DNA of 64,000 bases from a virus: positions 1 to 64,000 of IMG/VR virus record IMGVR_UViG_3300019129_000002; one strand, 5' to 3'. The notes under the pieces are model-generated. The model was not told where the DNA came from, did not search any database, and was given only the letters and a program-made list of their open reading frames with translations. Below are positions 3 to 46,911 of the stretch, one piece after another. Position 1 is the first letter of the stretch. Each line of letters opens with the position of its first letter. The translations under genes were made by a program, and so were the position numbers.

Positions 3-1586
3 AAAAATCCTGTTGGAACCCTTTTGGTGTTGGGTGCTGTTTTATTAGCTGTTAGCGGACCAATTGCAACGGTTGTGGGTGCGATACAGAGTGTTATGCC
101 CATTCTAGCGGTTGTGGGTAAATTTTTATTATTTGTCATGGGGAAGTTATTAGCAATTCTAGGGGTTGTGGGTAAATTTTTATTATTTGTCGGGGGGAAG
201 TTATTAGCAATTCTACCGGTTGTGGGTAAAGTTTTATTATTTCTCATGGGGAAGTTATTAGCAATATTAAGTCTCCCCGTTGCATTAATAGCCCTTATCG
301 TAGTAGCAGTGGCGGCCATAGGGGTAGCTATTTATGTCTTCCGTGACAAGATTTGGGGAGCTATTACAACCGTAGGTGAATTCCTACTCGGCATATTCAA
401 TTGGGTGAGAGATAAAGCTAGTGATTTGTGGTCTGCTGCTCAGGATGGGATAAATTCTATAAAAGACTTTTTCTCAAAAATCACTAGTATGATTGGAGGT
501 AAGATTTTTGATGCTGTAACAGGTTCTAAAAAGAAGAAAAAGTCCTCCCCAGGAGCTAAATCCTCAAAACTTGTTACCCCCTCCAAAGATAAGGGTGGAG
601 AGAAAGTAAAAGGCATGATAGGAAGGTTGTTCGACATCGAAACCTTGGTTAAGGATAATGTTGTTGCAACCCAGGAAACCAACAATAAAATAGATAAGGC
701 TTACTCTACAATAAAAAGACTTATGTTTAAACAAAATAGCATTCTGGGTGACCAAAGTGAAATATTAGATTTTGATAAAGGAGCCACGGAAACCGGTTTC
801 TCTTTCTTGGCTAAAGAAATGCACGACGATATAGACGGGCTTAGAACTAAGTTAGTAAGGTCTGATGAGTCTATGGAACGAACTTTCGTAAAAGTAGCAA
901 ACAAGATTGCGGCAGCGGGGGCTGTCGGTGATATGGGGCATGGTGGAATTTCAGGTAGTGGAATTTCAGGTAGTGGAATTTTAGGTAATCAGACTTTTGG
1001 TAATGATCCTATGAGCTACTTCGCAGAGTTAGCGGGAGAGTTTGGGTTGTCTAAAACATCAGGTTTGAGAAATAAACCTTGGCACAGCAAAACGTCCCTC
1101 CACTACACCGGTAACGCTATCGATATAAGTAACACTGCGGGGGGTCACCACCGTTCGTCCGCAACCCCTGAGATGATGAGAGCAGCCACATACATTGCTG
1201 AAACTTATGGATCAAGACTTCAAGAACTTATCTATACTCCTCTCGGTTACTCAATCAAACATGGGAAGAAGGTTCCCCCCATTGCTGCACAAACACACTA
1301 TAACCACATACATGTCGGCTGGCACAAAGGCAACACGAAACCTTTACTAGATGAAATGAGTAGTATGCCAAAGGGAGCTAAAATTGGATATGCAAACTCT
1401 TCAGAGTTTATAGCCAACAGTCAACAGACTAAGATGTTAGCCTCCGCTCTTCAAGGCTCTGGAGGTAGCGCAAATGTCACCGTCAACATCAACGGGTTCA
1501 ACGGTAACTCGGAAGAACTCGCTAAGAAGGTAGTCTATCATATCGAAACTGCCATGAATAGAGGTAGGCAAAACTCAATCGTATAG
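3..1586 (+). CDS. Tape-measure-like tail protein, C-terminal part, with M15 peptidase domain (5' end outside window)
   Basis: The frame is open from the left edge, so this is the end of a longer protein; the TTG at 24 is only an internal possible start. It begins with very hydrophobic segments built from an 18-residue tandem repeat, continues through a Lys-rich linker, and ends with a domain showing the M15 (VanY-type, zinc D,D-carboxypeptidase/endopeptidase) pattern: His codon 1101 and Asp codon 1122 in HYTGNAID, and the HxH pair at codons 1305 and 1311. Hydrophobic tape-measure proteins carrying a wall-cutting domain are common in phages and locally open peptidoglycan during DNA entry. Tape-measure is inferred from hydrophobicity and the peptidase; a separate tail lysin is the alternative. 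Confidence 0.7.
   Translation, partial: KNPVGTLLVLGAVLLAVSGPIATVVGAIQSVMPILAVVGKFLLFVMGKLLAILGVVGKFLLFVGGKLLAILPVVGKVLLFLMGKLLAILSLPVALIALIVVAVAAIGVAIYVFRDKIWGAITTVGEFLLGIFNWVRDKASDLWSAAQDGINSIKDFFSKITSMIGGKIFDAVTGSKKKKKSSPGAKSSKLVTPSKDKGGEKVKGMIGRLFDIETLVKDNVVATQETNNKIDKAYSTIKRLMFKQNSILGDQSEILDFDKGATETGFSFLAKEMHDDIDGLRTKLVRSDESMERTFVKVANKIAAAGAVGDMGHGGISGSGISGSGILGNQTFGNDPMSYFAELAGEFGLSKTSGLRNKPWHSKTSLHYTGNAIDISNTAGGHHRSSATPEMMRAATYIAETYGSRLQELIYTPLGYSIKHGKKVPPIAAQTHYNHIHVGWHKGNTKPLLDEMSSMPKGAKIGYANSSEFIANSQQTKMLASALQGSGGSANVTVNINGFNGNSEELAKKVVYHIETAMNRGRQNSIV
111..272 (+). repeat. Three tandem 54-bp repeats inside the tape-measure gene
   Basis: Units start at 111, 165 and 219, exactly 54 bp (18 codons) apart, each encoding a version of VVGKxLLFxxGKLLAIL. 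A decayed extra unit begins near 72. The copies differ by only a few bases, so duplication looks recent. The product is a run of hydrophobic helices. Confidence 0.9.
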
Positions 1587-1664: not shown

Positions 1665-1802
1665 TTGGTAGGGGAGACTTTCTCAGGGAAATAAAGAAAA
1701 GACTGTTAAGCTCCGGTCACAATTTAGAAAACATAAACTTTAGGGTATGAAGGGGTTGAAGAATACAAGGTCTTTATAAGGCCAGCAAGGAGAGAGAATG
1801 AT

Positions 1803-2645
1803 TTGAAAGCAGTAAACTTAATGAAATTTGATGTCGTCATAGGAAACCCCCCTTATCATGATGGGAAGAAGGGTAATACACGAGGTAAACTATGGATGAA
1901 GTTTGTTAAAGAAACTCCTAGGCTTCTTAAAGAAGGAGGTTTCTTCTCTATTCTTATCCCCGACTCATGGGTTAAGAATGAGAGTAAGTCATACCAAAAG
2001 ATTAGAGAAGTTTTTTCCGCATCCCTTGACACCCAAAGAGTAACAGATGTTTCGGGCTTTTTTAAAGTGGGAGTAGGTATCGTAGGGGTTTCTGGTTTAA
2101 AGCAACCTTATTCTGGGGAAACGGATTTTGATGGATTGGTTAGGGATGTAAATACTCCACCTCTACCTGAAAAAGTCTTACTTTCTGAAAAGTTAGCCTT
2201 ATCAGATTTTGCAAAACTCCATCTGATACGCTCAAATAGGGGCGGTGTGGAATACGAAGAAGGTGGAGCAAATGTTGTCTTGTACTCAGGGAAAAAGGAG
2301 AAACTTACAAATTGTAAAAACCTTGAAGGGAGTGGGGTGGACAAGATTGTTATCCCTGTTTCATGTTCCTATAAAAAAAGGTTTTTCACTAACCTTCCTA
2401 CAGGAGACCTTAATTTTTGGTTCCCTTGTGGAAGTGAGGAGGAGTATGGGATTTTGGATAACTTGTTTAACTTAAAAGTCGTCAGGTTTCTATGTGAAAA
2501 CTATAGGAAAAGCTCAGGTTTCACTAGTGCCGTTATAATGAATAAAATACCTGATCTAAGAGGAATGGATGATCAAGGTTCTTATAAGGCACTAGGGTTA
2601 ACACAAGAAGAAATTCAAATCATTGAGAAGGGCATAAAGTTATGA
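1803..2645 (+). CDS. DNA amino-methyltransferase, catalytic (motif IV) half of a split enzyme
   Basis: Carries motif IV NPPY at residues 15-18 in the context FDVVIGNPPYHDG, followed by the usual downstream motifs (LLKEGGFFSILIPDSW) and a region of target-recognition type. No SAM-binding motif I is present; that half is the next gene, 2642-2986, which overlaps by 4 bp (ATGA). N6-adenine methylation of DNA is the likely reaction. Start is probably TTG 1803, with AAGGAGAG just upstream; ATG 1821 is the alternative. In the usual enzyme with these sequence features the SAM half comes first, so this pair has permuted gene order. Confidence 0.75.
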   Translation: MKAVNLMKFDVVIGNPPYHDGKKGNTRGKLWMKFVKETPRLLKEGGFFSILIPDSWVKNESKSYQKIREVFSASLDTQRVTDVSGFFKVGVGIVGVSGLKQPYSGETDFDGLVRDVNTPPLPEKVLLSEKLALSDFAKLHLIRSNRGGVEYEEGGANVVLYSGKKEKLTNCKNLEGSGVDKIVIPVSCSYKKRFFTNLPTGDLNFWFPCGSEEEYGILDNLFNLKVVRFLCENYRKSSGFTSAVIMNKIPDLRGMDDQGSYKALGLTQEEIQIIEKGIKL

Positions 2646-2986
2646 TTGAAAGAAGTAAAGAACGAGTAAAGAAAACGGCTGAAGTATTCACCCCTTTAGA
2701 GTTATGTGAAAGAATGGTCATGGAAATCCCAAAAGAAAAGTTAAAAGACCCTTCCTCTCTATACCTTGATAACTCTTGTGGAGATGGTAACTTCTTGGTT
2801 ACCCTCTTGAAAGTCCTCACAGAAGAATACGGGCATGATAGAAACCATGTAGTTAATCATCAACTCTTTGGTGTGGACTTAATGGAGGACAATATCCGGG
2901 AAGTGCATAGAAGATTAGGTCTGGAATACCCTCACCCTCACTTCGTTTGTGCTGACTCTCTAAGGTACGATTTTTCTTTTATGTAA
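2642..2986 (+). CDS. DNA amino-methyltransferase, SAM-binding half of a split enzyme
   Basis: Holds motif X (TAEVFTP, residues 12-18), motif I (LDNSCGDGNFL, about residues 43-53), motif II (FGVDLMEDN) and motif III (ADSLRYDF), then stops at exactly the point where a one-piece enzyme would run into motif IV. Motif IV opens the preceding gene. The two products should dimerise to form one active site, as in split methyltransferases such as AquI. The stop codon lies inside the right copy of the 22-bp repeat. Confidence 0.75.
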   Translation: MIERSKERVKKTAEVFTPLELCERMVMEIPKEKLKDPSSLYLDNSCGDGNFLVTLLKVLTEEYGHDRNHVVNHQLFGVDLMEDNIREVHRRLGLEYPHPHFVCADSLRYDFSFM

Positions 2987-8437: not shown

Positions 8438-8620
8438 ATGCCAACTTTAGAACCCCCTGATAGAAGACCCGACGGGAGAATAAAGAAGCCTGAACCCGTT
8501 GAAGTAAACCCTCTTGCTGGTTTGACTAGTGACCAGTTGCTTGATAAGAGAAATGTTTTTAAGAAACTGAAGCAACCCTTAAACGAAATTGATGCAGAAC
8601 TAAAAAGAAGACATGGTTAA
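8438..8620 (+). CDS. Small hypothetical protein (60 aa)
   Basis: Pro/Lys-rich N-terminus and a helical C-terminus. AAGGAGTAAGGAGT repeats give a strong ribosome site. Overlaps the methylase start by 8 bp. Not recognised. Confidence 0.6.
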   Translation: MPTLEPPDRRPDGRIKKPEPVEVNPLAGLTSDQLLDKRNVFKKLKQPLNEIDAELKRRHG

Positions 8621-9452
8621 AACACCTTTACGATACCCTGGGGGTAAATCCCGAGCAATCAAACATCTGAAAGGCTTTCTCCCTTATCTTGGGAATGAGG
8701 AGTTTGAAGAGTTCTGTGAACCCTTTGCAGGTGGGGCTTCGGTCTCCATCTATATTTCTCAACTTTACCCAGAACTAAAAATCTGGATCAATGACATCTA
8801 CACCCCTTTATACAACTTCTGGATTACTTTGCAGCAAGAGCCTATGGAGCTTATCCCCGAGTTGGAAAAGATAAGAGTAGAAACTGTCAATCTAGAGGAT
8901 GACCTCCGACACAGGAAGTGTAAAGAGAGGTTCCTGCAAGCCAAGGAAGAACTGGATTCAGAAGATCCTATAGTCAGTGCCATCAGTTTCTACATCGTTA
9001 ACAAGTGTGGATTCAGTGGTATGATTACAGGTTTTTCTAAGAGTTCATCCGATAAAACGTTTACTCTCAGAGGAATAGAAAAGCTCTGGTTAGTAAAACA
9101 CCTTATCCGAGATTGGTCTATTACCAATCTATCCTATGAGGACTTGCTAACTAATAGTCAAAAGACCTTTATTTATCACGACCCTCCCTATGAAATAAAC
9201 TCTAGTCTTTACGGGAAACAAGGAAGTGTCCATAAGGTTTTCGACCACGTTAACTTTGCTGAGAACTGCAACCTATTCACTTGTCCTCAACTAATCTCTT
9301 ACAATGATACTCAAAAAGTCACAGAGAGATTTTCGGGTTGGCATCAAGGCAGGTTTAAGCATCAGTATTCTATGCAGTCTGGTAAGAAGTACCGAGAAAA
9401 TCAAAAGAAACGTCACGAGTTAGTCCTATACAACTACGAACTGGAGGAATAA
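8613..9452 (+). CDS. Dam-like DNA adenine N6-methyltransferase
   Basis: Alpha-class order: RYPGGKSRAIKHL (motif X) at the N-terminus, EPFAGGASVS (motif I), then catalytic DPPY in FIYHDPPYE near residue 190. Length (279 aa) fits Dam/T4 Dam relatives, which methylate adenine in short sites such as GATC. No restriction enzyme is adjacent, so protection of phage DNA or regulation is likely. A second Dam-like gene lies at 31859. Confidence 0.85.
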   Translation: MVKTPLRYPGGKSRAIKHLKGFLPYLGNEEFEEFCEPFAGGASVSIYISQLYPELKIWINDIYTPLYNFWITLQQEPMELIPELEKIRVETVNLEDDLRHRKCKERFLQAKEELDSEDPIVSAISFYIVNKCGFSGMITGFSKSSSDKTFTLRGIEKLWLVKHLIRDWSITNLSYEDLLTNSQKTFIYHDPPYEINSSLYGKQGSVHKVFDHVNFAENCNLFTCPQLISYNDTQKVTERFSGWHQGRFKHQYSMQSGKKYRENQKKRHELVLYNYELEE

Positions 9453-31749: not shown

Positions 31750-31866
31750 AGGGTCTCCCTCCCTTCAAAAACCCGAGTATGTTGTCCTTACTGTAAAAAG
31801 GAGACAAGTATTATCGGTATAACTAGAAATCATACATCAAAAACTGGAGAAAAAATCTATGACTAA
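31750..31866 (+). pseudogene. Startless zinc-finger fragment
   Basis: An open frame without any start codon reads TRVCCPYCKKETSIIGITRNHTSK, like the small C-x-x-C...H phage zinc fingers that often precede Dam genes. It runs into the start of the second Dam gene. Likely a remnant or frameshifted small gene. Confidence 0.35.
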
Positions 31867-32701
31867 ACCCCTTTTTATGTGGGCAGGTGGAAAGACCAAA
31901 AGGATCAAGCATTACCAACCTTTCCTTAAAAAAGTTACCTCTTATTGTGAACCTTTCTTTGGGGGAGGAGCTATGTTCATCCACATGAAAAAAGAGTTTG
32001 GTATAAGAGAGGCTTATATAAATGATATTCATCTTGAAGTCATGGATATTTACCGTACCATTAAATTTGATGTAGAAGGTTTTCTTAAAATCCTGGAAGA
32101 TTTAGAAAGAATCTATATGCCTCTGGACAAAGAGGGGAGGAAGGGTTACTATTACGACCTGAGGAACAAAAATGCCTGGGATTATAAAATGTGGGACTTA
32201 ACTCAACGTTCTGCTATCTTATACTTCCTGATGAGAACCTCCTTTAACGGTATCTACGAACTCAGAAAGAATACAAATGGAAGGTATGCAACCTCTTGTG
32301 GAAAAGTAGACCAGAAGAAGGAAGTCTTTTCTAGAGAAGTAGTCAGGTGGTGGCATAAGAACCTTCAAGATGTAACCATTACCCACGGGAACTGGAAGGA
32401 AAATCTACCAGAAGGTGACATCTTTTATTTCTTAGATCCTCCGTACAGAGGGACAAGAATGAAATACGGTACAGGATTTAGTGATCAAGATCTGGAAGAC
32501 CTCTTAGAGTTCGCCAAAGATAAAAAGTCTATGGTTTGCAACCAAGACTTAGGAGATGGATGGTTTGATAGCTACTCCGATGACTTCCATATACATAGAT
32601 TCCCCATAACCTACACAGTCGGAGTAAAGAAGAAAACGCCCGATGGTTACAAAGCCAAACCAGCTACAGAAGTTCTATTATTACCAAAAGGAGGAAAGTA
32701 A
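31859..32701 (+). CDS. Second Dam-like DNA adenine methyltransferase
   Basis: MWAGGKTKRIKHY (motif X), EPFFGGGAMF (motif I) and catalytic DPPY in FLDPPYRGTRMKYG are in alpha-class order. 280 aa. It is only distantly similar to the enzyme at 8613 (different target region), so two specificities are likely. CTGGAG ribosome site before ATG. Confidence 0.85.
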   Translation: MTKPLFMWAGGKTKRIKHYQPFLKKVTSYCEPFFGGGAMFIHMKKEFGIREAYINDIHLEVMDIYRTIKFDVEGFLKILEDLERIYMPLDKEGRKGYYYDLRNKNAWDYKMWDLTQRSAILYFLMRTSFNGIYELRKNTNGRYATSCGKVDQKKEVFSREVVRWWHKNLQDVTITHGNWKENLPEGDIFYFLDPPYRGTRMKYGTGFSDQDLEDLLEFAKDKKSMVCNQDLGDGWFDSYSDDFHIHRFPITYTVGVKKKTPDGYKAKPATEVLLLPKGGK

Positions 32702-41592: not shown

Positions 41593-43368
41593 ATGGAAAC
41601 TAATCCTCTAGGTTATCCTGTCCTAAACAAAAAGAACGCAAAAAAGATTTTCGGTAACTTGAAACCGAAGAACTTTGATCCCTGGGGTATAGAAAATGCT
41701 AAGAGAAACCTTAAAAAATTTGGTATTCCTGTCCCAGTTTATTCAGAAGAAGTTTGGGAGGGTGACTTACCCGTCCCACCACTAAAGGGAGAGGATATTT
41801 TCTCTCATTTTGATAATGTAGCTAATGAACAAGTAGGGAGGTTTATAAAATATGGTGACGAACTGAAAAGTAACCGTGTACAAGTTGACTTTAATCTCTT
41901 ATATCATAATAACATTTCTCCTTCTTTCAAGACTTTCGTAGATACCTTACTGGACCATGTTAAGGGTGGAGTGTGGTTGAGAGCGGAACCCGTAGTAATA
42001 GAGGACGGTGAGGTATTTCTCTTCTTGGACCATGTTGATACTCCCACGGAACCTGGGTTTATCTTTGACACAGAAACATTCGTAAAGTACAAGAACTACC
42101 CAATCATCGGGACAGCTTGCTCCCACAAAGCTATCTATCTATGGATTGCTTCTGAACTGTTGGATCCGAGTCTTCCGAAGGAACAATGGGATCAGTTCAA
42201 CTTTATCAATGTAGGGACTGACAACTTTATTGTTGCCCATAACGCAGCGTTCGATAGAACTAGAACTCAGGCGGCTTACCAGTTAAACAAGCTTGGCCCT
42301 GATAACTTCTGGTTTGATACTCAGTCTGCTCACATTGCTGTCAGCGGGTTAGCTTCTGGTCAACGTTGGCTCTACGCTCTAAATGGGAAAGACCCTAGCT
42401 TACTGTCGGCTGCTGAGAAACGTAAGCTCCGTTACAAACCTGAATGGTTAGGAGAAGGTTCTACCAACTCCTTAGTCGAAGTTTATAACTTTCATGTTGC
42501 ACAACCAAAGTTTCTACTTAACCCTGACACTAAGTTCCTGGGTGATGAAGACAAGGAAACTCGGGATATATTTGTTCTGTCAGAAACCTTGCAGGAGATT
42601 AAGGATCAACTTTACGTAGCCGTTGAGTACGCTATAAAGGACTCCCTCTACACCCATGAACTCTTCCAGGTGTTATGGGGGAAATATAAAGAAACGACTC
42701 CTTCTAAGATCGCTTTTGTAGGTCATTACCACCTTGGAGCATCTAAGGTTCCCTTAGTCCCTGATTGGGAAGAGTGGAAGGAAGAAGCCGAAAAGGTGTG
42801 GGAGTCTCGTAACCAGCAAATGGAAGACAACGTCAAAGCTATTGCTAAGAAAGAGTTCGAGAAGTGGCAAAAGTCTGTCCTTGACGAGAAAGCAGGAGTA
42901 GTTAAGTATATTCACAGTAACTACCCTAAGTTCATGCCTCTACTCTTCGGTTTCAAGACGATGGAGGAACAAATAGAATTTGTTGAGGAGTATGCCCACA
43001 TTGATAAGTTTATTCGCAACTTCTGTAATAAGAAGGGTGAATGGACTTTCAAATGGGTAAAGGGTAGCAACAAGTTTAAACGCCCCGACCTTGACAAGCA
43101 TATTCTAAAGTGGTTAGAACTGCTAGGGTTTGACTGGCATCCTAAGACTACTAAGATGATAGATGACGACTCTTGGATGCGTCAGCTTGACTGGAAGTTT
43201 ACGACTACAGGTACCTATGCCTATAAACCTAACTGGTATCGTAAGTTCCAAGAGAAAACTGTTTCAACTAAGAACAGAACTGCACACTTATTATTGAGGC
43301 TTAAGTGGGATGGAAAGCCTATTTTATTTACCAAAGACAAAGGATGGTGTTTTGATGACGGAAACTAA
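41593..43368 (+). CDS. Pol-gamma-like DNA polymerase, piece 1: 3'-5' exonuclease and spacer
   Basis: 591 aa. Exo I DTE (Asp159-Glu161), Exo II AHNAAFD (Asp221) and Exo III YAIKD (Tyr346, Asp350). Between them the phrases ISxHMAxSGLxS-like HIAVSGLASGQRW and NSLVEVYNFHV match animal mitochondrial DNA polymerase gamma closely. The end, PNWYRKFQEK...LKWDGKPILFTKDKGW, corresponds to the Pol gamma segment ending near HGWGY, where the spacer meets the palm. No polymerase motifs follow. Proofreading subunit of a multi-part enzyme. Confidence 0.85.
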   Translation: METNPLGYPVLNKKNAKKIFGNLKPKNFDPWGIENAKRNLKKFGIPVPVYSEEVWEGDLPVPPLKGEDIFSHFDNVANEQVGRFIKYGDELKSNRVQVDFNLLYHNNISPSFKTFVDTLLDHVKGGVWLRAEPVVIEDGEVFLFLDHVDTPTEPGFIFDTETFVKYKNYPIIGTACSHKAIYLWIASELLDPSLPKEQWDQFNFINVGTDNFIVAHNAAFDRTRTQAAYQLNKLGPDNFWFDTQSAHIAVSGLASGQRWLYALNGKDPSLLSAAEKRKLRYKPEWLGEGSTNSLVEVYNFHVAQPKFLLNPDTKFLGDEDKETRDIFVLSETLQEIKDQLYVAVEYAIKDSLYTHELFQVLWGKYKETTPSKIAFVGHYHLGASKVPLVPDWEEWKEEAEKVWESRNQQMEDNVKAIAKKEFEKWQKSVLDEKAGVVKYIHSNYPKFMPLLFGFKTMEEQIEFVEEYAHIDKFIRNFCNKKGEWTFKWVKGSNKFKRPDLDKHILKWLELLGFDWHPKTTKMIDDDSWMRQLDWKFTTTGTYAYKPNWYRKFQEKTVSTKNRTAHLLLRLKWDGKPILFTKDKGWCFDDGN

Positions 43369-43933
43369 AAAGGAATGTATCCTCCAGATATGTGAGGATT
43401 TCGGTTCCAAGTACCCATTCAAAGTCCCTAGAACTGCAAACGAAGAGTCTTTTGATCGAAGTAGAATACACAATCTTAATCGTGATCCTAATCAGTATAG
43501 TTTTTATCACTGGACCGGGAACGACACAATAAAACTCCCTTACTACTCACTATCTCAACTCTATGTCATCGCCTATAATGAAGCCTTTCAAAAAGAAAAT
43601 AGTTTGCATGATGTCAGGTTGGGAGACGTGGTTCTTAGGGTTATTAAGTACGGGAAGAAAGAACCTTTTGGTCAACACTTGGATATCGACTATGTTAGCT
43701 ATACCGTCGCTTCAGTTAAGGATAATGAAGTAAAACTAAAAGGTAACATCCATTATGGACTTCAAGCTGAGAAGGTAGGGTTAGTGAAAGAGGCAACTCC
43801 TCACTATTTTAATCCTGATGGTGCGGACTTCTCTTTCGTCATGTTCTTTAACCTGCACTTTTCTACTAAACTTACAGACTATCAAAACGTGGGAGAATAT
43901 TTAAATGCTTGCATCTACAAACACAGAGACTAA
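43355..43933 (+). CDS. Hypothetical protein (192 aa) between polymerase pieces
   Basis: ATG 43355 overlaps the end of piece 1 by 14 bp; an in-frame upstream start at 43310 is less likely. Contains VASVKDNEVKLKGN and HYFNPDG; not polymerase-like and not recognised as an endonuclease. Confidence 0.6.
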   Translation: MTETKKECILQICEDFGSKYPFKVPRTANEESFDRSRIHNLNRDPNQYSFYHWTGNDTIKLPYYSLSQLYVIAYNEAFQKENSLHDVRLGDVVLRVIKYGKKEPFGQHLDIDYVSYTVASVKDNEVKLKGNIHYGLQAEKVGLVKEATPHYFNPDGADFSFVMFFNLHFSTKLTDYQNVGEYLNACIYKHRD

Positions 43934-44249
43934 ACGTCTCGAGTTCATTAAACCTTATTTCTCCTTTAGGGGCGGATTTAATACAACTTGTCGTCTAGGG
44001 AAGAAGTGGTTCGACGCACTTAAGGGGGAGAAAGAAGTTCTTCTCACAGGTTATGAAGACCATCATGTTATCCGTGCTGAAGTGGTAACTATTTCCTACA
44101 AACCTTTCTATCGACTCAGTACTATGGACGTAGCTAGTCACCAATATACTCGGGATTTAAGGAGTTTGGAACGGTTAATGAGGGAATGCTATAGTTTGAA
44201 GTTCGACCCTGAAACTGCTTTCGTAACACTTGTAGGATTTGATATATGA
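43905..44249 (+). CDS. Hypothetical protein (114 aa)
   Basis: Overlaps the previous ORF by 29 bp. RGGFNTTCRLGKKWFDALKG and an alpha/beta body; no known motif. Confidence 0.6.
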   Translation: MLASTNTETKRLEFIKPYFSFRGGFNTTCRLGKKWFDALKGEKEVLLTGYEDHHVIRAEVVTISYKPFYRLSTMDVASHQYTRDLRSLERLMRECYSLKFDPETAFVTLVGFDI

Positions 44250-44347
44250 ACCAATTTGGAATATTGTTGTTTTCCGGAGTTAGCGTCTTTTTAATGTGTG
44301 TAGTTTTGTTAACTTTTTTCAATAGTTTTACACAAGGGGGTGATTAG
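44246..44347 (+). CDS. Single-helix membrane peptide (33 aa)
   Basis: ATG in an ATGA overlap. One long hydrophobic helix (FGILLFSGVSVFLMCVVLL) and a short polar tail, the size of photosystem or cytochrome-complex small subunits, but no specific one is recognised. Confidence 0.45.
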   Translation: MNQFGILLFSGVSVFLMCVVLLTFFNSFTQGGD

Positions 44348-44357
44348 ATGTTATAAT
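44327..44357 (+). promoter_or_regulatory. Sigma70-like promoter (weak -35)
   Basis: TTTACA/TTACAC near 44327-44333 and TATAAT 44352-44357 with TG upstream. Drives 44392. Confidence 0.5.
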
Positions 44358-44391
44358 GGTATCATAAGCTTTACGGAGGTAAAGAGCCATT

Positions 44392-44628
44392 ATGTCCGAC
44401 ACACATCGTAATGTTCGCTTCGCTAACCTTAACGCTCGTCGGGTTAGCCGTCATTCTCAGTTGAAAAATGTAACCAACGCTATTGAGCAGATTACCGAAG
44501 AATTCGGAACCGAGATGCTCTATAGTCGGTTACTCAACATAGGTCGTATCCCTAACAACTATGATGACTACCGTGTTAGCGGAGCAAGTGAAATTTTTGT
44601 AGAAGATTGGGAGGAATATTTATCCTAG
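44392..44628 (+). CDS. Small hypothetical protein (78 aa)
   Basis: ACGGAGG ribosome site. Arg-rich N-terminus (HRNVRFANLNARRVSRHS), acidic C-terminus. Not recognised. Confidence 0.55.
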   Translation: MSDTHRNVRFANLNARRVSRHSQLKNVTNAIEQITEEFGTEMLYSRLLNIGRIPNNYDDYRVSGASEIFVEDWEEYLS

Positions 44629-44739
44629 TTAGTAGTTTCAAAAGCACTTCTTTATCCATACTGGGTATCTTTATCCTATGGGCTTTTGTTTGGGGAGTTG
44701 TGTCCTTGTCACAATCCCTAGATATCTCTTCGGAGAGGG

Positions 44740-44768
44740 TGGTCAGTATGGAATAGAACCGTTATAAT
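44740..44768 (+). promoter_or_regulatory. Sigma70-like promoter
   Basis: TGGTCA 44740-44745, 17 bp, TATAAT 44763-44768. Confidence 0.6.
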
Positions 44769-44796
44769 GTTGGTGTCAAAGTCTTTAGTTGTCATG

Positions 44797-45048
44797 ACAC
44801 TTTACAAGAGTAAGGAAACGAAGGCTAAGCTCCTTAACTCCACCCGTGTCTATCTTCTGAAGGTTTACTACCTTGCTCAATCTGAAGACGCTCCTGAAAA
44901 GGAGGCAAAAATAGGTCGGGTCTTGTCAAACTACCCTATAACCAGTTATAATGACTTTGGTTACACCGAAATGTTTGAACTAAACCAACACACAATGGAG
45001 TTTATAGAAAACTATGGTATTGCGTCAAATTCCTCACCCATCGGGTAA
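44797..45048 (+). CDS. Hypothetical protein (about 83 aa) before polymerase piece 2
   Basis: ATG 44797 is preferred, as an upstream in-frame ATG 44767 overlaps the -10 box. Helical (KETKAKLLNSTRVYLLKVYYL). It overlaps piece 2 by 35 bp and contains that gene's promoter. Confidence 0.45.
   Translation, partial: TLYKSKETKAKLLNSTRVYLLKVYYLAQSEDAPEKEAKIGRVLSNYPITSYNDFGYTEMFELNQHTMEFIENYGIASNSSPIG
44923..44952 (+). promoter_or_regulatory. Sigma70-like promoter of polymerase piece 2
   Basis: TTGTCA 44923-44928, 18 bp, TATAAT 44947-44952; 61 bp before the ATG of piece 2. Confidence 0.7.
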
Positions 45049-45625
45049 GAAGGGGCAGAATGTTGGGGTTTTACTCTCAAAGGACTTCGTAAAGGCCCTG
45101 GAAAGTGGTCTGTTGAGTTCTGACTACCCTGAAGCTGAGGAAGCTCTTCAAATAGCAAGGGAGACAAGCTACTGGACATCTGTTAGGAAGAGGGTGTTTG
45201 ACCGTATCTTCCGTGAGGTTAAAAACCCTTATGGTGAGAATGCTAACATCACTCTCCCTGACATTCTTCCACATGGAACCGTAACACGCCGAACCGTAGA
45301 AAACCTTATGGTTACGATGTGTAGCACCAAAAACTATAAAATAGGGTCTGAGCTAAAAACCCGTATCCAAGCTCCAGATGGTTGGAAGGTAGTGGGTGCG
45401 GACTTTGACTCTCAAGAGTTGAGTATCGCTGGTATCTATGCCGATAGTTGGGAGGGAGGGATAAATGGTTGCACAGCACTAGGTTTCCAAGTTCTATCTG
45501 GTTCCAAGGCAAAGGGTTCTGATGGACACACAGTCTTTGCACGTAACATGATGGAAGAGGAGTACAAAGATCTTTACTTTGATCCAGAACTCGGCATCTT
45601 AGAAAAGGTTACTATTGATGAGTAA
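45014..45625 (+). CDS. Pol-gamma-like DNA polymerase, piece 2: palm with motif A
   Basis: 203 aa. Motif A VVGADFDSQELSIAG with metal-binding Asp130; upstream HGTVTRRTVENL and GSELKTRIQAPDGW, downstream GCTALGFQVLSG and KGSDGHTVFA. These run parallel to human Pol gamma (GTITRRAVE, GSELKAMVQAPPGY, GADVDSQELW, GCTAFGW, GTDLHS). It begins at the LPH...NVG point and ends just before the fingers helix. It cannot be an active polymerase alone because motifs B and C are in piece 3. Confidence 0.88.
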   Translation: MVLRQIPHPSGKKGQNVGVLLSKDFVKALESGLLSSDYPEAEEALQIARETSYWTSVRKRVFDRIFREVKNPYGENANITLPDILPHGTVTRRTVENLMVTMCSTKNYKIGSELKTRIQAPDGWKVVGADFDSQELSIAGIYADSWEGGINGCTALGFQVLSGSKAKGSDGHTVFARNMMEEEYKDLYFDPELGILEKVTIDE

Positions 45626-45630
45626 AAGAC

Positions 45631-45660
45631 TTGACCAAAACAACCTTTATCAAATATGCT
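45631..45660 (+). promoter_or_regulatory. Possible promoter
   Basis: TTGACC 45631-45636, 18 bp, TATGCT 45655-45660. Upstream of 45677. Confidence 0.4.
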
Positions 45661-45676
45661 ATCATTATCTTAGAAA

Positions 45677-46040
45677 ATGAATGATAATGACCAGGAATAT
45701 ATCTTACTGTCAAATAATACAGGTGAAGACACTATTTCTGCTACTCTTCATATCAAAGGGGCTTGTGATTTAGGTGAAAACGGGGGGGGAACCTAAAAAG
45801 GATTTTAGACAGATGCGGACTATTGTGAGGATTCTAAAAAAGCAAAGGAGTTCTCAATTGAGAAAGTTAGCCAGAATCGAGAAGATTGATGACATCCTTC
45901 CCATTGAAAAAGCAAATCGGATTAAGGTTACCACTATTGGGGGGTGGGATGTCGTTGTAAAGGAACGGGAACACCGTGTCAGGGAAAGTAAAGTTTCCTT
46001 CAAGGTTACCTCCAATCTCCACCTCTTAAATGAGGGCTAA
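45677..46040 (+). CDS. Hypothetical protein interrupted at a G8 run, between polymerase pieces 2 and 3
   Basis: Frame 1 from ATG 45677 reads MNDNDQEYILLSNNTGEDTI... to DLGENGG and stops at 45796. A second frame from 45774 (possible GTG start) reads EPKKDFRQMRTIVRILKKQRSS... to 46040. The frames join cleanly if the run at 45782-45789 had seven G instead of eight, giving about 120 aa. Either two overlapping genes, slippage on the homopolymer, or a sequence error. Confidence 0.45.
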
Positions 46041-46042
46041 AC

Positions 46043-46072
46043 TTGTCAGATCCCTTACACAAGGGTTATAAT
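46043..46072 (+). promoter_or_regulatory. Sigma70-like promoter of polymerase piece 3
   Basis: TTGTCA 46043-46048, 18 bp, TATAAT 46067-46072; 24 bp before ATG. Confidence 0.75.
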
Positions 46073-46095
46073 GTTTATGTAAACCAGGAGACAAA

Positions 46096-46911
46096 ATGGA
46101 TTACCCTACAAAGACCTTAAAAGACGGGACAGAAGTTTATCAAATCAACGGTGAGTGGTATAAAAAGATTGACAAGGAAAGGAAAGCTCTCCTAAAAGAA
46201 TATAGAGAGTGTGCCAAAGTCTCTAATTATAGCATTCTTTACGGGGGAGGGGCTTATGCTTCCTCTATACCTTGGAAACAATCTTTCCCTATGATGGATC
46301 AGGAAGTTCTTTTTAGCAAGCTTAAAAAAGCCATGGTTAAAAAGAAGGGAGTAAGAGATAAGGAAACTGGACATCTCAGAGGAGGTACAGATTCCGAAGC
46401 TTTTTGTAAGATGGAACAGATTGCTCTGAAAAGTAGGGTTCCCACGTTGCCCGCACTGGGGACTCAAATCACCACGGCTCTAAGACCCAAGGCAGTAAAC
46501 AGTGACTTCGTAACGGGTAGGTTGAATTGGGGAATCCAATGTTCCGGATCTGAGTTCTTAGCTATCTTCCTAACTGCCATCCATTGGTTAGCAGAGGAAA
46601 AAGAAATCCCTTGTCAGTTCATCATCTCCATCCACGATGAAATCTGGTTTATGGTTCCCGAAGAGTATGCTTCGGCATTCGTGGTCTTATTTCAGATTGC
46701 TCACGTTTTTACATGGGCTTACTTCCAAGCTGCTTGTGGGATCTACGAGTTACCTTTGGCAAGAGCTTTCTTCTCAGGTGTGTCATTAGATGACAGAGTG
46801 AGGAAGTCTCCTTACGAATGTACCAAAACTCTAAGCAACCAGAAAGACGAGTCTGATGGGGAAGAAATCACCATGTGGGACTTAGAAAAACGCGGTTGGT
46901 TACATGACTAA
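46096..46911 (+). CDS. Pol-gamma-like DNA polymerase, piece 3: fingers and palm with motifs B and C
   Basis: 271 aa. Motif B RECAKVSNYSILYGGG (Arg37, Lys41), motif C ISIHDEIWFMV (Asp181, Glu182). GGTDSEAFCKMEQIAL, LRPKAVNSDFVTGRLNW and ARAFFSGVSLDDRVRK parallel human Pol gamma GGTESEMFNKLESIA, LEPSAV, TSRVNW and VAFFSAVDIDRCLRK. The tail PYECTKTLSNQ also matches. Own ribosome site (CCAGGAGACAAA). Together with pieces 1 and 2 all catalytic motifs of a proofreading family-A polymerase are accounted for. Confidence 0.88.
   Translation: MDYPTKTLKDGTEVYQINGEWYKKIDKERKALLKEYRECAKVSNYSILYGGGAYASSIPWKQSFPMMDQEVLFSKLKKAMVKKKGVRDKETGHLRGGTDSEAFCKMEQIALKSRVPTLPALGTQITTALRPKAVNSDFVTGRLNWGIQCSGSEFLAIFLTAIHWLAEEKEIPCQFIISIHDEIWFMVPEEYASAFVVLFQIAHVFTWAYFQAACGIYELPLARAFFSGVSLDDRVRKSPYECTKTLSNQKDESDGEEITMWDLEKRGWLHD

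What the first reader, a model, noticed from the sequence alone, without database searches (positions are those of the whole stretch)
1803..2986. Amino-methyltransferase split and permuted: motif IV gene precedes the SAM-binding gene
The first gene starts almost at NPPY and lacks motif I; the second carries motifs X, I, II, III and stops exactly where NPPY should follow. Fusing gene 2 to gene 1 recreates a standard FTP...NPPYH enzyme. The pair therefore shows both a split and a circular permutation, giving a beta-class-like order from a sequence type that normally has X-I before IV. The genes overlap by 4 bp, favouring equal dosage.
Basis: partly seen in the sequence, partly recalled or inferred. 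Interest (0 to 1): 0.75.

Follow-up and report, generated by a model that had tools for sequence, protein, structure and literature searches.

The report
Phage adenine methylase split between genes
A cyanophage-like virus carries one DNA-methylating enzyme in two overlapping genes, one for the half that holds the methyl donor and one for the half that catalyses and reads DNA; it is a stripped-down, order-reversed relative of a known bacterial split methylase (DrdVI type), and its relatives seem to preserve steps by which an enzyme can become circularly permuted.

Summary
Gene 1 (1803 or 1821 to 2645) starts at motif IV (FDVVIGNPPYH), with no motif I and no upstream partner. Gene 2 (2642-2986) carries motifs X, I, II and III and stops where IV should follow. 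They overlap as ATGA.

Gene 2 homologues occur in many phages. In 77 of 78 non-redundant viral loci with enough flanking sequence, a motif-IV-type gene lies in the same locus, usually overlapping.

Aeromonas phages carry both parts in one ~385-415 aa protein, in the same order. An AlphaFold2 model of one aligns in sequence to beta-class methylases, but only half by half to gamma-class enzymes.

Bacterial relatives are the DrdVI/MaeIV "split methylases". Their M1 keeps motif I but lacks NPPY; their M2 keeps NPPY but has a degenerate motif I. Published cloning of the M1-M2 loci gave m6A activity.

Best reading: an orphan two-chain N6-adenine methyltransferase. It is a reduced DrdVI-like pair in reversed order, probably produced by complementary loss of halves from two paralogues rather than by simple splitting. 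It is a new variant of a known kind. Assembly and activity of this pair are untested.

The parts
1787..1792 (+). Shine-Dalgarno-like AAGGAG, 10 nt before TTG 1803 and 5 nt before a 2-codon ATG ATT TGA at 1798-1806
   Evidence: read from the sequence
1803..2645 (+). gene 1: catalytic half (motif IV to VIII) plus target-recognition region; M2/B-type subunit without its N-terminal SAM half. Start TTG 1803 or ATG 1821
   Evidence: Pfam Eco57I 4e-12, phrog_3689 2.6e-17; profile match to M2.DrdVI residues 201-530, E 6.9e-19, 99.1%; AF2 model residues 1-111 match CamA 157-314, Z 8.5, 3.2 A over 107
1845..1856 (+). catalytic motif IV, NPPY
   Evidence: sequence; invariant N-P-P columns in alignment A5
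2642..2645 (+). ATGA overlap of gene 1 stop and gene 2 start
2642..2986 (+). gene 2: SAM-binding half (X, I, II, III) ending right after motif III; M1/A-type subunit
   Evidence: phrog_4376 1.5e-41; profile match to M1.DrdVI E 1.7e-22, 99.5%; BLASTP 36% identity to M1.DrdVI
2687..2695 (+). motif X-type FTP
   Evidence: invariant in 24 homologues
2768..2794 (+). motif I, DNSCGDGNF (SAM binding)
   Evidence: both Gly invariant in 24 homologues and intact in the viral set
2870..2893 (+). motif II, GVDLMEDN
2948..2971 (+). motif III, CADSLRYD, followed by FSFM and stop

Best explanation
The two genes encode the two chains of one N6-adenine DNA methyltransferase. Gene 2 supplies the SAM-binding half of the Rossmann fold (strands 1-3, motifs X-III). 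Gene 1 supplies strands 4-7 with the NPPY catalytic loop and the target-recognition domain. They are probably translated together from overlapping reading frames and assemble so that the gene 2 SAM pocket faces the gene 1 NPPY motif, rebuilding one complete fold. The pair is a reduced relative of the bacterial DrdVI-type split methylases (M1+M2), with gene order reversed (M2-M1). M2 has lost its already degenerate SAM half, and M1 has lost everything after motif III. No nuclease gene was recognised beside it, so it most likely acts as an orphan methylase that modifies phage (and host) DNA, for example against host restriction. Shown here: motif partition, homology to both subunits, linkage, existence of natural fusions, and a predicted fold for a fused relative. 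Inferred: chain assembly, m6A product in this phage, target site, and protective role.
For: (1) Complementary motifs. (2) Of 82 non-redundant viral gene 2 ORFs, 4 lack upstream sequence. Of the other 78, 66 have a motif-IV ORF abutting or overlapping, 11 have one elsewhere in the locus, and 1 has none. The loci were found with gene 2 alone, so partner presence was not selected for. (3) Single-chain fusions in the same order in Aeromonas phages CC2, 65, Aeh1, PX29 (NPPY at residue 9-13, motif I at 315-322). (4) AF2 model of the CC2 fusion (pTM 0.65, mean pLDDT 69.7): residues 1-364 align in sequence with beta-class M.MboIIA (Z 10.5, 3.2 A, 147 residues), and similarly M.BceJIV, CcrM and M.RsrI. 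Gamma-class CamA and M.TaqI match only one half at a time at low rmsd (282-383 to CamA 20-152, Z 11.5; 1-120 to M.TaqI 96-244, Z 9.1). (5) Bacterial homologues: M1 has FLEPACG[DSN]GNF and no NPPY, while M2 has DP..K[ST]G in place of motif I plus NPPY; such a pair was found in 70 of 80 loci. The annotated DrdVI locus is the same arrangement. (6) Published: M1-2.DrdVI (GCAGCC, m6A) and M1-M2.MaeIV (GCACY, m6A), cloned as loci, methylate in E. coli; the latter paper calls the family split methylases (PMC6430315, PMC10113651). (7) The tree of X-III halves puts phage gene 2, the fusions and bacterial M1 on one side of a branch from bacterial M2 halves (SH-aLRT 90).
Against: No two-chain structure prediction or experiment was possible. 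Many phage partners and the bacterial partners of gene 2 homologues keep a (degenerate) SAM half, so in those relatives gene 2 cannot simply fill an empty place, and the real subunit geometry may differ. The published clones carried both M genes together; the papers do not show that each is needed. Support in the tree is moderate (115 columns), and two phage partner halves (L006, L007) fall on the gene 2 side. The recognition region of both models is poorly predicted. The only close relative of the window locus is the same virus, so selection on the pair could not be measured.
Confidence: 0.83

Rival explanations
1. Gene 2 is an accessory SAM-binding or docking subunit that sits beside a partner with its own (degenerate) Rossmann fold, as in heterodimeric methylases with one inactive paralogue, rather than filling the missing half of the fold.
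For: Bacterial M2 and many phage partners keep an N-terminal pseudo-SAM half.
Against: The half is absent in the window and in at least 25 of the 62 pairs scored automatically, and presence and absence occur within one close family (L030/L036/L094/L095 against L071/L074). In the Aeromonas fusions only one set of strands exists, and it models as one fold.
Confidence: 0.2
2. The pair is a decaying remnant of a methylase or restriction system, broken into two pieces and non-functional.
For: No nuclease recognised nearby; M2 lost its SAM half; possible TTG start.
Against: All motif residues are intact; the overlap arrangement recurs in distant phages; gene 2 motif I is intact in the whole viral set; gene 2 is about 50-57% identical to cyanophage homologues over its full length.
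Confidence: 0.06
3. The pair is part of an active phage-borne restriction-modification module rather than an orphan methylase.
For: Bacterial relatives have a T5orf172 (GIY-YIG type) gene, mostly with a ResIII helicase domain, downstream. Phage relatives carry GIY-YIG, ResIII or nuclease-like partners fused or adjacent.
Against: Neighbours in the window are a tail tape-measure-like gene and small genes without such domains; the 92-aa ORF downstream matches nothing.
Confidence: 0.08
4. A gamma-class methylase gene was cut once between motifs III and IV and the pieces swapped, without any duplication.
For: Gene 2 plus gene 1 concatenated gives a standard X-I-II-III-IV order.
Against: Bacterial and several phage pairs carry two X-III halves, one intact and one degenerate, which points to two paralogues with complementary losses.
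Confidence: 0.15

Closest known systems
DrdVI-type split methylases (M1-2.DrdVI, M1-M2.MaeIV)
   Same: Two adjacent genes; M1 with X, I, II, III and no NPPY; M2 with NPPY and recognition region; profile matches to both subunits; m6A product published for the cloned loci.
   Different: Gene order reversed (M2-M1); window M2 lacks the N-terminal degenerate SAM half; M1 ends at motif III (114 against 212 aa); no GIY-YIG/helicase gene adjacent.
Single-chain Aeromonas phage proteins (CC2 gp189, Aeh1 ORF084c, phage 65 p65301, PX29 gp083; phrog_11371-like)
   Same: Same parts in the same order, starting at motif IV and ending at or soon after motif III.
   Different: One polypeptide, annotated hypothetical; methylase activity not known.
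Cyanophage pairs of a phrog_3689-like gene and a phrog_4376 gene (S-CAM7, P-SSM2, Bellamy, MA01, S-SKS1)
   Same: Same pair, same order, overlapping genes in most; mostly annotated hypothetical.
   Different: Partner often fused to a ResIII helicase or a degenerate SAM half; in Bellamy another gene lies between.
Beta-class N6 methylases (M.MboIIA, M.RsrI, CcrM, M.BceJIV)
   Same: Order IV..TRD..X-I-III; the fused relative's model aligns along the chain.
   Different: Single chains; the window pair matches Eco57I/N6_Mtase profiles instead, and its nearest solved relatives by sequence are CamA and M.BseCI.
Gamma-class single-chain methylases (M.TaqI, M.BseCI, CamA, Eco57I family)
   Same: Sequence similarity of each half; CamA and M.TaqI match half by half in structure.
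   Different: One chain with X-I-III before IV.
[quoted passage not shown]
   Same: Two chains rebuild one enzyme.
   Different: Cytosine-C5 enzymes; the cut lies at a different place.

Membership tests
DrdVI-type split m6A methylase | Small M1 with intact X, I, II, III and no NPPY | tested here: met
DrdVI-type split m6A methylase | M2 with NPPY and C-terminal recognition region | tested here: met
DrdVI-type split m6A methylase | M2 keeps an N-terminal half with degenerate motif I (DP..K[ST]G) | tested here: not met
   absent; stop at 1734-1736 and no remnant upstream. Hence called a reduced relative, not a strict member
DrdVI-type split m6A methylase | Gene order M1 then M2, then GIY-YIG/helicase subunit | tested here: not met
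   order is M2-M1 and no such gene was recognised adjacent
DrdVI-type split m6A methylase | m6A at a specific site when both genes are expressed | not testable with these tools
   published for DrdVI and MaeIV only
Eco57I methylase domain (PF07669) | Score above the gathering cut-off | tested here: met
   gene 1, 47 bits against 25.3, profile positions 73-165 of 171
Gamma-class amino-methyltransferase | One chain with X-I-II-III before IV | tested here: not met
   two genes, IV part first
Beta-class amino-methyltransferase | IV to VIII, TRD, X, I to III along one chain | tested here: not met
   order met across two genes but not in one chain; met in the fused Aeromonas phage relative
Beta-class amino-methyltransferase | Match to the N6_N4_Mtase profile (PF01555) | tested here: inconclusive
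   not among the Pfam hits of either gene at E up to 1; not compared directly

The most novel reading that the evidence does not exclude
Living phages preserve steps of the proposed route from a tandem duplicate to a circularly permuted enzyme: two paralogues with complementary defects (bacterial M1/M2), a partner with a decaying SAM half (many phages), fully complementary two-gene halves (the window), and re-fusion in the new order to a single beta-like chain (Aeromonas phages). In addition, one SAM subunit may serve several exchangeable catalytic and recognition subunits (L012).
Probability: 0.5. Interest if true: 0.72.

Novelty: new variant of a known kind. Interest (0 to 1): 0.55.

Why it matters
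Permuted motif orders in DNA methylases have been explained by duplication followed by loss of halves (background knowledge), and intermediates would be valuable. This family offers candidate intermediates in extant genomes, including minimal two-chain and re-fused forms. It also suggests a function for phage families annotated as unknown (phrog_4376, phrog_11371), and gives natural split adenine-methylase halves that could be useful as tools.

Tried and rejected
A search with gene 1 alone found no relatives in viral contigs apart from the same virus, so gene 2 and profiles were used. A first alignment for structure prediction misaligned partner C-termini and was replaced. Foldseek alone gave no match at E below 0.001 (best 2.2e-3, CamA); the VIA alignment was used for chain order. 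A missing N-terminal half of gene 1 or an upstream partner was looked for and not found. Loci without a partner in the automatic linkage count were mostly pattern misses and were read by eye. No paper describing the phage pair was found in the open library; subscription literature and REBASE were not searchable. A search of the window's own record for gene 2 showed no second copy.

Full report
Observation. The two ORFs are as described. Gene 1 runs from TTG 1803 (or ATG 1821) to 2645, has MKFDVVIGNPPYH at its start, and matches only the motif IV part of Pfam Eco57I (47 bits, cut-off 25.3, profile 73-165 of 171). Gene 2 runs 2642-2986, with FTP, DNSCGDGNF, GVDLMEDN and CADSLRYD, then FSFM and stop; it matches N6_Mtase (23.1 bits) and phrog_4376 at 1.5e-41, a family of unknown function. 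The genes overlap as ATGA. The stop at 1734-1736 limits any gene 1 extension to 22 residues, and the preceding 216 bp hold no partner gene or remnant detectable with a gene 2 profile. A second contig shows the same locus at 99.96% identity.

Setting. The window is most of a 64,890-base virus record. Its portal protein is 51% identical to that of Synechococcus phage S-CBWM1, and a 24-kb stretch has no close match in the phage collection. Upstream of the pair is a tail tape-measure-like gene; no nuclease or helicase domain was recognised next to the pair.

Relatives in phages. Gene 2 alone finds homologues in 84 phage records and at least 370 viral stretches, of which 80 were kept. After removing near-copies, 82 gene 2 ORFs remain, and 78 have enough upstream sequence. 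Of these, 66 have a motif-IV ORF abutting or overlapping (62 by pattern, 4 by eye), 11 have one elsewhere in the locus (L013, L016, L017, L018, L023, L041, L049, L054, L066, L078, L099) and only L025 has none. Motif I of gene 2 is intact in the whole viral set. Partner genes have NPPY in 53 of the 62 scored, with NPPF, NYPY, NFPF, NFPY and NSPF in the rest.

State of the partner's SAM half. Some partners keep a nearly complete half (L005 IDPCMGKGVF, L008 CDLSMGTGSF), others a clearly degenerate one (L030, L036, L094, L095: LLI.GDPSG), and at least 25 of 62 have none, including the window, S-CAM7 and P-SSM2. Presence and absence occur inside one close cyanophage family, so the half is probably dispensable when gene 2 is present (inference).

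Fusions. In Aeromonas phages CC2, 65, Aeh1 and PX29 one protein has NPPY at residue 9-13 and motif I at 315-322, ending at or soon after motif III. This is the window's order as one chain. An AlphaFold2 model of the CC2 protein (mean pLDDT 69.7, pTM 0.65; the last 80 or so residues about 90 or above, the recognition region poor) aligns along the chain with beta-class enzymes: M.MboIIA residues 21-256 with model 1-364, Z 10.5, 3.2 A, 147 residues; also M.BceJIV, CcrM and M.RsrI. CamA and M.TaqI match half by half (Z 11.5 and 9.1). The two parts are therefore predicted to form one methylase fold in permuted order. A model of window gene 1 alone (pTM 0.52) has residues 1-111 matching CamA 157-314 (Z 8.5, 3.2 A); this Z is near the level common for unrelated models and is backed mainly by 26% identity and the sequence matches.

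Bacterial homologues. A genome search by the gene 2 profile found pairs in many phyla. The first gene (about 220 aa) has FLEPACG[DSN]GNF and no NPPY. The next gene (about 510-550 aa) has a degenerate motif I, DP..K[ST]G, and an NPPY; it was found in 70 of 80 loci, some of them cut before NPPY by contig ends. In five loci examined, a T5orf172 gene follows, with a ResIII helicase domain recognised in four of them. A plasmid hit led to pDrdVI of Deinococcus wulumuqiensis 479 with the same three-gene arrangement. Window gene 2 matches its first gene (profile 99.5%, E 1.7e-22; BLASTP 36%) and window gene 1 matches residues 201-530 of its second (99.1%, E 6.9e-19). The published methylome lists M1-2.DrdVI, m6A at GCAGCC, cloned and expressed in E. 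coli (PMC6430315). [quoted passage not shown] A third paper describes DrdVI as a fused translocase and nuclease with M1 and M2, and a gene similar to M1 at its N-terminus and M2 at its C-terminus (PMC4996451). The assignment of the two pDrdVI genes as M1 and M2 follows from the locus and was not checked in REBASE.

Origin. In a tree of the X-III halves (115 columns, SH-aLRT only) bacterial M2 halves are one side of a branch (91), bacterial M1 another (83), and phage gene 2, the fusions and bacterial M1 fall together (90), with the L006 and L007 partner halves inside on long branches. This fits an old duplication with complementary loss: M1 lost catalysis, M2 lost SAM binding, and the phage forms shed the dead parts. 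The direction and number of losses are inferred.

Mechanism. Gene 2 most likely binds SAM, and gene 1 binds DNA and catalyses methyl transfer to a flipped-out adenine with NPPY (mechanism from knowledge of the family); the complex would be needed for activity. The overlap suggests coupled translation. The role is most likely DNA modification for protection, since no nuclease was recognised nearby; the phage also carries two D12-class Dam-type methylases. None of this was tested by experiment.

Verdict. The finding is real. It is a new variant of a known kind: a minimal, order-reversed, phage-borne relative of DrdVI-type split adenine methylases. The permutation story is the more interesting part, and the series of forms makes it testable.

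Noticed in passing
L012:1-5393: Three tandem motif-IV genes share 73-100 bp direct repeats at 93-99% DNA identity around variable middles, followed by a single gene 2 homologue; this looks like exchangeable recognition cassettes sharing one SAM subunit.
   Followed up: partly
L017:3403-3966 and L016:4446-5048: In phages Bellamy and ACG-2014f a small gene that by eye looks like a PD-(D/E)XK nuclease (no Pfam match for the Bellamy copy) lies between the two methylase genes.
   Followed up: partly
L024:2307-3965: Vibrio phage phi-ST2 partner gene has an N-terminal GIY-YIG domain (LEM-3-like, 6e-16) before the motif-IV half, and gene 2 follows with a 4-bp overlap.
   Followed up: partly
L191:3986-5143: In the phage 65 fusion the linker between the halves differs from CC2 as if read in another frame over about 40 residues, suggesting a compensated double frameshift in an unconstrained linker.
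   Followed up: no
window 1798-1806: A two-codon ATG ATT TGA with good Shine-Dalgarno spacing overlaps the TTG start of gene 1; possible leader minicistron.
   Followed up: no
window 41593-46911: By eye, a DNA polymerase seems to be spread over several ORFs (41593-43368, 45014-45625, 46096-46911) with gaps, perhaps split by introns or insertions.
   Followed up: no
window 8613-9452 and 31859-32701: Two separate D12-class adenine methylase genes in the same phage.
   Followed up: no
window 102-265: 54-bp tandem repeats (about 92% identical) coding a repeated hydrophobic stretch in the tape-measure-like gene.
   Followed up: no
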